Shown: piece by piece, positions 17,241-26,371 of the stretch
Layout: each line of letters begins with the position of its first letter
How positions within the stretch are numbered: position 1 is the first letter of the stretch
NCBI GenBank assembly: GCA_903923175.1
Contig: CAIXWQ010000770.1
Coordinates: forward strand, 1-35,935
Length of the DNA: 35,935 nt
Source of the DNA: an uncultured delta proteobacterium
Lineage (GTDB): Bacteria > Myxococcota_A > Polyangia > Polyangiales > JADJMO01
Reading direction: 5' to 3'
Made by a program: the position numbers and the translations under genes
The notes under the pieces: generated by a model
What the model was told of the DNA's origin: nothing
What the model saw: only the letters and a program-made list of their open reading frames with translations
The model's database searches: none

Positions 17241-18683
<1,443 letters not shown>

Positions 18684-18708
18684 GCCACGCGCTCGCCAGA
18701 GCCGCACG

Positions 18709-20271
18709 ATGGATCTCCTGGCGGGCGCAGCCTTCGCCGAGTGCGGCGTCTACGTCATACTCGCGGCCTATTTCTTCCTGTTCTCGTTCCGCAAGGCGCC
18801 GGAGTCGCTCGAGTTCCGGCTCTTCGCGCTCGCGTGCGTCGGCATGGCGGTCTACGCCGTGTTCGTCGGCCTCCACTTCCGCGTGCCCGACGACGCGCGC
18901 GCCGCCGACTGGATCGCCCGGACGGTGTACCCCGCGGCCGTCGTCGCCGCGGCCTCGCTCCACGTCACGCTGCTCTACGCGGAGGTCGAGCCGCGCCTGC
19001 GCCGAGGGATCGCGCGCGCGGCCTGGGTGCTCGCGCCGCTGATGGCGGGCGCGCAGGCCGCGGGGCTCCTCTTCACGCACACGCCGCGCACGCGCGTCGT
19101 CGTGCTCGGCTCGCTCTCGCACGCGAGCCGGTGGTGGCAGCCGCGGCCTTCGATGTTCGTGCTCCACGGCTTCCTGCTGCTGTGCGCCGCGCTCGCCGTC
19201 GCCGCGCTCTTCAAGGCCATCCGCGACGGCAAGCGCGAGGCGCGCTTCGCGATCTTCGGCGCCGGCGTGATGGCGATCGCGGTCGTGAACGACGTGCTGG
19301 TCGCGCAGGACGTCGTTCACGGGATCTCGGTCACCGAGCACGCGTTCGCGATCTTCGCGTTCGGGCTCTCGTACACGCTCCTCGCCCGCTACGTGCGCTT
19401 CGCCGAGGCGCTCGACGTCAAGGGGGCCGAGCTGCGCAAGCGCGCGCAGAAGCTCCGGCGCGCGTACGAGGAGCTGCGCGCGGCGCAGGAAGAGCTCGTC
19501 CGCAAGGAGCAGCTCGCGGTGATCGGCGAGCTCGCCGCGGTCGTCTCGCACGAGGTCCGCAACCCGCTCGCGATCATCCGCAACGCGGTCGCCGGGCTGC
19601 GCCGCGCAGGCGCGAGCGACGAGGACCGCGAGATGCTCCTCGGCATCCTCGACGAGGAGACGGCGCACCTGAATCACCTCGTCGGCGACCTGCTCCGCTA
19701 CGCGCGGCCCATCCACATCGAGCGACAGCGGCTCGACCTGGACACGCTCGTCGGCAAGGCGTGCGAGCTCGCCGCCGGCCACCAGAAGGTCAAGCTCGAG
19801 CGCGTCGGGCGCGGCGCCGATCTGCCGGACGCGCAGGGCGACGCGAACCTGATCCGCCAGGTCCTCGACAACCTCGTCCAGAACGCCTGCCAGGCGATGC
19901 CCGAGGGCGGCACGCTCACCGTGCGCCTGGTCGCCGCGAGCGAAGAGGGGCGCGACGGCGTCGCCGTGGAGGTCGCGGACACCGGCGAAGGGATGGACAC
20001 CATCGTTCGCTCCCGAGCGCGCACGCCGTTCTTCACCACGCGCCCCGCCGGCACGGGGCTCGGCCTCGCGATCTGCGACCGCATCGTCACGGCCCACGGC
20101 GGCCTGCTGGCGATCAAGAGCCGGGCGCTCGAGGGGACGGTCGTGCGCGTGTTCCTCCCCGCGGGCACCGGAATCCAGACGCCCGAGCCGATGCGCAGCT
20201 CGGCGCCGCCGCCGAGCTCGCGGAGCGTATCCGAGCGGCTCGAATCGGCCTACGCAGCCCCCCGCCGATGA
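18709..20271 (+). CDS. Seven-TM sensor histidine kinase
   Basis: 520 residues. Seven hydrophobic segments fill residues 5-235 (starting AECGVYVILAAYFFLFSF and ending AFAIFAFGLSYTLLARYV), with almost no periplasmic domain, then a coiled coil (about 240-270) and the kinase core. H-box SHEVRNPLAII with His 281; N-box DNLVQNACQAMP; G1 DTGEGM; G2 GTGLGLAIC. The 7TM N-terminus without PAS or HAMP suggests the membrane region itself senses a signal, lipid state or a partner protein. Adjacent to the NtrC-type regulator, likely its partner. The stop overlaps the start of rlmE (ATGA), so rRNA methylation is coupled to this signalling operon by translation at least. Confidence 0.92.
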   Translation: MDLLAGAAFAECGVYVILAAYFFLFSFRKAPESLEFRLFALACVGMAVYAVFVGLHFRVPDDARAADWIARTVYPAAVVAAASLHVTLLYAEVEPRLRRGIARAAWVLAPLMAGAQAAGLLFTHTPRTRVVVLGSLSHASRWWQPRPSMFVLHGFLLLCAALAVAALFKAIRDGKREARFAIFGAGVMAIAVVNDVLVAQDVVHGISVTEHAFAIFAFGLSYTLLARYVRFAEALDVKGAELRKRAQKLRRAYEELRAAQEELVRKEQLAVIGELAAVVSHEVRNPLAIIRNAVAGLRRAGASDEDREMLLGILDEETAHLNHLVGDLLRYARPIHIERQRLDLDTLVGKACELAAGHQKVKLERVGRGADLPDAQGDANLIRQVLDNLVQNACQAMPEGGTLTVRLVAASEEGRDGVAVEVADTGEGMDTIVRSRARTPFFTTRPAGTGLGLAICDRIVTAHGGLLAIKSRALEGTVVRVFLPAGTGIQTPEPMRSSAPPPSSRSVSERLESAYAAPRR

Positions 20272-20900
20272 GCCGCAAGTCGCCCAAAGACTCCTACGCC
20301 CGCCCCGACGCCTTCTCCAAGCGCGCGAAGGCCGAGGGCTACCCCGCGCGTTCCATCTACAAGCTCGAGGAGATCGACCAGCGCTGCGCCTTGCTGCGCC
20401 CCGGCCAGCGCGTGCTCGACCTCGGGTGCGCCCCGGGCTCGTGGCTGCTCTACGCCGCCAAGCGCGTGGGGCCGAAGGGGAGCGTCCGCGGCGTCGATCT
20501 CACGCCGCTCGCGATCGGGCTCCCGAGCAACGCCGTGTCGCTCGCCGGCGACGCGTTCGAGCCGAGCGGGCCGACCTACGACTTCATCCGGGAGGGGGCG
20601 CCGTACGACGCGGTGGTCTCCGACATGGCCCCTTCGACCACCGGCAACCGCTTCACCGATCAGGTCCGCAGCGCCGATCTCGTGCGCCGGACCCTGGAGA
20701 TCGCCGGCGAGTTCCTCGCGCCTGGCGGCGCATGGGTGGCGAAGATATTCATGAGCGAGGAGCTGGTCTCCATCCGCAAGCGTGTGCGCGAGCTCTTCGA
20801 CGAAGAGCGCATCATCCGCCCGGAGGGGACTCGGCAGATCAGCTACGAGGTCTTCCTGGTCGGCCTGCGCCGGAGGCCCGAGGCGCCCCCGACGGGCTGA
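20268..20900 (+). CDS. rlmE: 23S rRNA (uridine-2'-O)-methyltransferase RlmE (FtsJ/RrmJ)
   Basis: 210 residues, the usual length, starting at the ATG inside the kinase stop. N-terminus [21 protein letters not shown] then SIYKLEEID (Lys of the catalytic tetrad). SAM motif I is [14 protein letters not shown]. The other tetrad residues are visible: Asp in [13 protein letters not shown], Lys in WVAKIF and Glu in ISYEVFLV. RlmE methylates the ribose of U2552 (E. coli numbering) in 23S rRNA of the 50S subunit, late in assembly. metK, which makes the SAM substrate, follows after a 223-base gap on the same strand. Confidence 0.95.
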
Positions 20901-20990
20901 GGGCCCCGCGCCGCGGCGGCGAAGTGGCGGCGCCGCGAGGCGTTCCGCCCGCACGTTCGGGCCGGGGCCGACGTTGACGGGGGAGGGCGC

Positions 20991-21095
20991 GCGTCGTACA
21001 CGACGCCGCCCCGCTGCCGCGCACGTAGTCGTGCGCCGCGTCGGGGCGAGTGAACCAAGGCGCCCGGTGGCGCCCCGGCGGTGCAGGTCACCGCC
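20991..21095 (+). promoter_or_regulatory. Structured leader upstream of metK: four consecutive perfect hairpins
   Basis: In the 105 bases before the metK ribosome site there are four perfect inverted repeats: GCGTCGT/ACGACGC with a 2-base centre (20991-21006), GCGCACG-TAGT-CGTGCGC (21019-21036), GGCGCC-CGGT-GGCGCC (21059-21074) and GGCGGTG-CAGGT-CACCGCC (21077-21095). Three have four- or five-base loops. They end 17 bases before AAGGAG. The arrangement suggests an RNA leader or cis-regulatory element. It does not match the SAM or SAH riboswitch consensus I can recall. Function is inference. Confidence 0.5.
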
Positions 21096-21123
21096 CAAGA
21101 TTCAGACGCGAAAAGGAGCTGCG

Positions 21124-22368
21124 ATGAGCCGTTATCAGTTCACCTCGGAGTCGGTCACCGAGGGACATCCCGACAAAATCTGCGACCAGATCAGCGACGC
21201 GATCCTCGACGGCATCATCAAGCAGGACAAGAAGGCGCGCGTCGCCTGCGAGACCCTGGTCAAGACGGGCATGGCCGTCGTCGCGGGTGAGATCACCACG
21301 AAGGCGTGGATCGACCTCCCCGTCGTGATCCGCCAGACGATCGCGGAGATCGGCTACACCGACTCGTCGATGGGCTTCGACGCGCACACCTGCGCGGTCC
21401 TCGCGGCGATCGAGAAGCAGTCGCCGGACATCTCGCAGGGCGTGACCGAGGGCGAGGGGCTCCACAAGGAGCAGGGCGCCGGCGATCAGGGCCTCATGTT
21501 CGGCTTCGCCTGCGACGAGACCCCCGAGCTGATGCCGCTGCCGATCCAGACGGCGCACGCGCTCGCGCGTCGGCTCGCCGCGGTCCGCAAGAACGGCGAC
21601 CTGAAGTGGCTCCGCCCCGACGGCAAGACGCAGGTGACCGTCGAGTACGAGGACGACGGCAAGCCCTCGCGCATCGACGCGATCGTCGTCTCGACGCAGC
21701 ACTCCGAGGACGTGAAGTACAAGACCCTCAAGGAGGCGGTCATCGAGACCGTCGTCAAGAAGGTCGTCCCGGCGCGCCTCATCGACAACAAGACGAAGAT
21801 CTACATCAACCCGACGGGCCGCTTCGTCATCGGCGGCCCCTACGGCGACGCCGGCGTCACCGGCCGCAAGATCATCGTCGACACCTACGGCGGCATGGGC
21901 CGTCACGGCGGCGGCGCGTTCTCTGGCAAGGACCCGTCGAAGGTCGACCGCTCGGCCGCGTACTACGCGCGCTACGTGGCGAAGAACATCGTCGCCTCGA
22001 AGCTCGCCAAGCGCTGCGAGGTCCAGATCGCGTACGCGATCGGCGTCGCGCAGCCGGTCGGCGTCTACGTCCGCACGATGGGCACCGGCGTCGTGAGCGA
22101 CGACGCGCTGAGCGCGTGGGTCCTCAAGAACTTCGACATGCGCCCCAAGGCGATCATCGACCAGCTCGACCTCCTGCGGCCGATCTACAAGTCGACCGCC
22201 GCCTACGGCCACTTCGGCCGCAAGGAGTTCACCTGGGAGAAGACCGACCGGGCCGACCAGCTCGCGCACGCCTTCGCCAAGCAGGTGAAGGGCGCTGCCG
22301 ACGCCGCGAAGGCCACGTCGAAGACCGCCCCCAAGGGGCGCGCGCCGGCGAAGTCGAAGCGCGGCTGA
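21124..22368 (+). CDS. metK: S-adenosylmethionine synthetase
   Basis: 414 residues from ATG at 21124, with ribosome site AAGGAG five bases upstream; the frame stays open upstream but the family begins [20 protein letters not shown]. Conserved blocks: ATP/methionine motif [29 protein letters not shown], the phosphate loop [19 protein letters not shown] and the tail YGHFGR. MetK joins methionine and ATP to give SAM, the methyl donor for RlmE and others. The last 25 residues are a Lys/Ala/Pro-rich tail (from [12 protein letters not shown] to KSKRG) not needed in typical MetK. The long upstream leader with hairpins and the strong terminator downstream suggest a monocistronic unit. Confidence 0.97.

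Positions 22369-22585: not shown

Positions 22586-26371
<3,786 letters not shown>

What the first reader, a model, noticed from the sequence alone, without database searches (positions are those of the whole stretch)
20901..21123. Hairpin-rich leader before metK: a candidate cis-acting RNA element
Four perfect inverted repeats (7, 7, 6 and 7 bp), three with four- or five-base loops, follow each other within 105 bases and end just before the ribosome site of metK. MetK is often controlled by SAM-sensing RNAs, but the segment does not match the SAM or SAH riboswitch cores I can recall. Each hairpin could arise by chance at this GC content; four in a row is less likely.
Basis: partly seen in the sequence, partly recalled or inferred. 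Interest (0 to 1): 0.6.

Follow-up and report, generated by a model that had tools for sequence, protein, structure and literature searches.

The report
Conserved UAGU hairpin in metK leader
In one family of large-genome (probably myxo-)bacteria, the message for the SAM-making enzyme MetK starts with an unusually long, folded leader carrying a conserved hairpin that matches no catalogued RNA, so it is probably a new, narrowly distributed control element whose trigger is unknown.

Summary
The hairpins are real. Four perfect stem-loops in 112 nt occur in 0 of 4000 shuffles, and this is the only such stretch among 5118 segments of the window. The reading needs correction. The first hairpin (20991-21006) coincides with the -10 box (TTGACG 20974, N17, TACACG 20997) and is not conserved, so transcription probably starts near 21008. 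The real leader is about 116 nt and holds hairpins A (21008-21047), B and C.

Hairpin A is conserved upstream of metK in all five held genomes of this family (three genera). CGTAGTCG is the only 8-mer common to the five leaders (0 of 3000 shuffles). It always forms the hairpin apex with a UAGU loop, while the outer stem changes with compensation (4 of 6 pairs in one genus). B and C are confined to the window's genus.

Other families of the order mostly have short metK leaders without it. No Rfam family matches. In genus g3 a good intrinsic terminator follows A, with a possible antiterminator.

Best reading: a new, family-restricted cis-acting metK leader RNA, effector unknown. Evidence for a SAM riboswitch specifically is absent, and a DNA operator is not fully excluded. 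The base is only five genomes.

The parts
20268..20900 (+). upstream gene rlmE/ftsJ (23S rRNA methyltransferase family)
   Evidence: Pfam FtsJ E 5e-40; translation
20974..20979 (+). -35 element TTGACG
   Evidence: TTGACG-N17-TA before metK in all five genomes of the family; TTGAC-N16..18-TA before 34 of 46 other metK genes of the order
21008..21047 (+). hairpin A: 16 bp with two single mismatches and UAGU loop; begins at the inferred transcription start (about 21007-21010)
   Evidence: conserved in five genomes with compensatory changes
21024..21031 (+). invariant apex CGTAGTCG (UAGU loop 21026-21029 closed by two C-G/G-C pairs)
   Evidence: only 8-mer shared by all five leaders; 0 of 3000 shuffles
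21059..21074 (+). hairpin B, stem identical in G001, loop changed
   Evidence: not found in genera g2, g3
21077..21095 (+). hairpin C, stem identical in G001, one loop change; no U-run follows
21113..21118 (+). Shine-Dalgarno AAGGAG
   Evidence: conserved 14/14 to the ATG in G001
21124..22368 (+). metK, S-adenosylmethionine synthetase, 414 aa
   Evidence: Pfam S-AdoMet_synt N, M, C

Best explanation
metK in this bacterial family is transcribed from a sigma-70-type promoter (TTGACG-N17-TACACG in the window), giving an unusually long folded leader of about 116 nt. Its conserved part is hairpin A, which displays an invariant C-G-UAGU-C-G apex on a stem whose sequence drifts but whose pairing is kept. 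The most likely role is a cis-acting recognition hairpin: a trans-acting factor (an RNA-binding protein or RNase, less likely a small metabolite) recognises the apex and tunes metK expression through lineage-specific downstream structures. In genus g3 that platform looks like transcription attenuation, because an intrinsic terminator follows A and the 3' arm of A can instead pair with the terminator's 5' arm. In the window's genus the platform would be hairpins B and C. Shown by sequence: the promoter, the conservation of A, compensatory pairing, the g3 terminator. Inferred: that the leader is transcribed, that A regulates, and what recognises it.
For: All five family genomes have TTGACG-N17-TA and leaders of 108-160 nt; 34 other order members with a recognisable promoter have a median of 32 nt. 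CGTAGTCG is the only 8-mer common to the five leaders, 0 of 3000 shuffles. It is the apex of the predicted hairpin in all five, with identical local MFE structures for G002 and G004. Outer stem of G002/G004: 6 of 6 pairs kept, 4 with both sides changed, against 0-1 in slid controls. Inner stem over five sequences: 91% paired, two pairs with double changes, slid controls at most 49% paired. The loop TAGT is not palindromic yet invariant, which suits RNA better than a symmetric DNA operator. Distance of the apex from the -10 box varies between genera (about 20 to 70 nt), unlike a promoter operator. G003 terminator: 8-bp stem plus ATTTTT, 0.2 expected in shuffles; competing pairing appears in truncated folds.
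Against: There are only five sequences and three genera, so covariation is below what a formal test such as R-scape would call significant; shuffle control (a) for the g2 pair is 32 of 500. The hairpin-A fold is not unusual against shuffles in G003 (71/1000) or G004 (271/1000). The downstream structures differ between genera, and no terminator is visible in the window's leader. Predicted Shine-Dalgarno accessibility does not change consistently when A is blocked. No second gene with the motif was found, so there is no regulon to support a sensor. The transcription start is inferred from sequence only.
Confidence: 0.5

Rival explanations
1. A palindromic DNA operator (CGNNCG-TAGT-CGNNCG) just downstream of the promoter, bound by a repressor of metK; the RNA hairpin is a by-product of the palindrome.
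For: The conserved core is a near-perfect palindrome with invariant CG steps and lies close downstream of the promoter in the window's genus.
Against: The centre TAGT is invariant but not symmetric; the distance to the promoter varies by tens of bases; the outer stem in G002/G004 changes sequence with compensation, offset by a 3x1 internal loop, which no operator needs. No SahR/SamR-like ATC-N10-GAT and no MetJ box in the region. No convincing second site in the genome.
Confidence: 0.2
2. A 5'-terminal stabilising hairpin that protects metK mRNA from 5'-end-dependent decay, without sensing anything.
For: In the window and G001 hairpin A begins at the inferred first nucleotide.
Against: In G003 A starts about 15 nt, and in g2 more than 45 nt, from the inferred start; mere stability does not require an invariant loop sequence.
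Confidence: 0.15
3. A new SAM- or SAH-sensing riboswitch class.
For: Position before metK; leader with alternative structures and, in G003, a terminator with a possible antiterminator.
Against: Only about eight invariant nucleotides on a simple hairpin with a 4-nt loop, smaller and simpler than the known SAM-binding folds (own knowledge); no pseudoknot or conserved junction found; no match to any Rfam family; not found at other methionine-cycle genes.
Confidence: 0.08
4. Chance hairpins in GC-rich intergenic DNA.
For: GC-rich genome; the R1 model gives chance hits up to 41 bits in coding DNA; two of the four reported hairpins occur only in the window's genus and one lies on the promoter.
Against: 0 of 4000 shuffles for the four hairpins; conservation of A in three genera at the same gene.
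Confidence: 0.07

Closest known systems
SAM-SAH riboswitch (RF01727), before metK in Rhodobacterales
   Same: small leader RNA directly upstream of metK
   Different: H-type pseudoknot with a larger conserved core; no match by covariance search here; other phylum
SAM-II, SAM-V, SAM-III (SMK), SAM-VI and SAM-I riboswitches
   Same: leaders of SAM/methionine genes, with termination or translation platforms
   Different: no match in Rfam scans of the five metK loci; the element here is one hairpin with a 4-nt loop
Leader hairpins recognised by RNA-binding proteins (for example ribosomal-protein autoregulatory leaders)
   Same: stem kept by compensation, short invariant loop, lineage-specific platform
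   Different: binding protein unknown; the downstream gene is a metabolic enzyme
SahR/SamR operators of Proteobacteria (PMC4239095)
   Same: palindromic sequence at metK
   Different: SahR/SamR consensus ATC-N10-GAT absent; asymmetric invariant centre; variable distance to promoter

Membership tests
Known SAM/SAH riboswitch families (Rfam RF00162, RF01057, RF01727, SAM-II, III, IV, V, VI) | score above the family's covariance-model cut-off | tested here: not met
   0 matches at gathering score in the window and in the relatives' metK loci; permissive scan of 551 nt around the leader gives only unrelated eukaryotic/archaeal names
SAM-sensing riboswitch (as a kind) | direct binding of SAM or SAH | not testable with these tools
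   needs in-line probing or ITC
SAM-sensing riboswitch (as a kind) | recurrence upstream of several methionine/SAM genes (usual, not obligatory) | tested here: not met
   model R1 finds no convincing second copy in the five genomes; the top background hits lie in long open frames
Structured cis-regulatory leader RNA | stem conserved through compensatory changes with conserved loop | tested here: met
   4 of 6 outer pairs double-changed in G002/G004, invariant UAGU apex in five genomes; small sample
Structured cis-regulatory leader RNA | transcribed as part of the metK mRNA | tested here: inconclusive
   promoter conserved and placed upstream of A; no transcript data
Transcription attenuator | intrinsic terminator with competing antiterminator | tested here: inconclusive
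   present in G003; no terminator in the window's leader
SahR/SamR or MetJ operator | ATC-N10-GAT or AGACGTCT box | tested here: not met
   none in 20901-21123

The most novel reading that the evidence does not exclude
A new, family-restricted regulatory RNA class at metK in which an invariant UAGU-capped hairpin senses SAM status, directly or through a dedicated protein, and switches lineage-specific platforms (terminator in one genus, other structures in the others).
Probability: 0.15. Interest if true: 0.7.

Novelty: new variant of a known kind. Interest (0 to 1): 0.42.

Why it matters
SAM synthetase control in myxobacteria is not described in the papers I could search. If real, this would be an uncatalogued leader RNA at a central metabolic gene, with a small, testable core (UAGU apex) and a natural series of platforms in related genera, useful for finding the factor that recognises it.

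Tried and rejected
BLAST hits of the leader elsewhere in the own genome (C1339, C705) look like chance matches in coding-like GC-rich DNA. The second-best model hit in the own genome (C913, 40.7 bits) is antisense inside an FG-GAP-type coding sequence; the other top background hits also lie in long open frames. Leader as an N-terminal extension of MetK: the frame is open back to 20782, but the leaders of the relatives differ by indels not divisible by three (13 nt to G001), so rejected. Conserved upstream ORF: none seen. Shine-Dalgarno sequestration controlled by A: no consistent effect. Repeat element: hairpin C has one exact copy in the own genome and one in G001, both at metK. Spread beyond the family: no R1 hit at metK in 377 genomes of the phylum (with strict filters). 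Literature: no paper on such a leader found. The single genome-contig scan was saturated by distant metK genes and gave no further family member. The SAH-family search had no positive control, so it does not show absence.

Full report
Observation. The four stem-loops are present at the stated place. Dinucleotide shuffles of 20989-21100 never gave four non-overlapping perfect hairpins (0 of 4000), and of 5118 segments of equal length in the window only this one has four. The folding energy of 20990-21100 is well below shuffles (z = -4.0), whereas the wider 20901-21140 is not remarkable (z = -1.1). The second hairpin is the apex of a longer one, 21008-21047, with 16 pairs and two single mismatches.

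Promoter and true leader. Comparing metK upstream regions across the order shows a recurrent TTGAC-N16..18-TA promoter (34 of 46 non-family members by a simple rule). In all five genomes of the window's family it reads TTGACG-N17-TA. In the window it is TTGACG at 20974 and TACACG at 20997, so transcription should begin about 21007-21010. The leader is thus about 116 nt. Leaders in the other family members are 108-160 nt; in 34 other members of the order the median is 32 nt.

Conservation of hairpin A. Only five genomes of the family are held. In all of them the metK leader contains CGTAGTCG, the only 8-mer common to the five; no shuffle set shared any 8-mer (0 of 3000). It forms the apex of a predicted hairpin in each. 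The two members of genus g2 share a 20-nt apex exactly, and their outer six pairs are all kept although four changed on both sides; slid controls have 0-1 such pairs. Over five sequences the inner seven pairs are 91% paired. In g1 and g3 the 16-pair version is 92% paired, with two double changes. The sample is small and this is not a formal covariation test.

Hairpins B and C. Their stems are identical in the congener while loops and linkers changed, but they do not occur in g2 or g3. Hairpin C has one exact copy in the own genome and one in G001, both at metK. They may be a genus-specific platform or local constraint; there is no covariation to judge by.

Downstream platform. In G003 an 8-bp hairpin followed by ATTTTT lies between A and the gene, and folds of partial transcripts show the 3' arm of A pairing with the terminator's 5' arm. 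That is the anatomy of an attenuator, predicted only. In the window no terminator is seen. Blocking A does not change predicted Shine-Dalgarno accessibility in a consistent way.

Distribution. A covariance model of A (R1) finds the five metK copies; the other hits in the family's genomes that I checked lie in long open frames, including a 40.7-bit one antisense to an FG-GAP-like gene. In 377 genomes of the phylum no hit outside the family sits at metK: for genomes of the order this was read off by comparing the hit places with the metK places (strict filters lose weak matches; hits in genomes outside the order were not checked for metK one by one). So, as far as tested, the element is single-locus and family-restricted.

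Known families. Rfam scans of the window and of the four relatives' loci give nothing at gathering scores, and a permissive scan near the leader gives only unrelated names. SAM-I (RF00162) is not found in the own genome, with working positive controls; the SAH search had no working control. The SahR/SamR and MetJ consensus boxes are absent (consensus for SahR/SamR from PMC4239095; MetJ box from my own knowledge). Searches of the paper library found no description of this leader.

Interpretation. An invariant, asymmetric loop on a stem kept by compensation, at a variable distance from the promoter, is better explained by an RNA recognition hairpin than by a DNA operator. What recognises it is unknown. 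A direct SAM sensor is possible but the conserved core is very small; a protein or RNase partner is more likely. I put about 0.75 on A being a conserved RNA structure, 0.5 on the regulatory reading given as best explanation, 0.08 on a SAM/SAH riboswitch.

Taxonomy.

Noticed in passing
window 20782-21123: The metK reading frame is open upstream to 20782, so a gene finder could call a false 528-aa MetK; relatives' indels show the leader is not coding.
   Followed up: yes
window 22586-26371 (+): Downstream of metK lies a 1261-aa subtilase-like protein with FG-GAP/VCBS-like repeats and a C-terminus resembling a MYXO-CTERM sorting signal (by eye).
   Followed up: no
window 17241-20271 (+): An NtrC-like response regulator (17241-18683) is followed by a histidine kinase (18709-20271) upstream of rlmE (by eye).
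   Followed up: no
L225 1501-1607 (genome G002, C2:42034-42140, minus strand): G002 has a SAM-I riboswitch match over Rfam's cut-off (50.2 bits) in an unexpected setting near a DUF262-like and an AAA-ATPase-like gene; none in the other four family genomes.
   Followed up: partly
L007 1436-1458: Intrinsic terminator inside the metK leader of G003, with a competing antiterminator pairing.
   Followed up: yes
L014 (G027), within about 250 bases upstream of metK: Long inverted repeats lie upstream of metK in this other-family genome (CATGACTGC...GCAGTCATG; CTACTGCCGGGGAGTTCCCGGCAGTAG), seen by eye.
   Followed up: no
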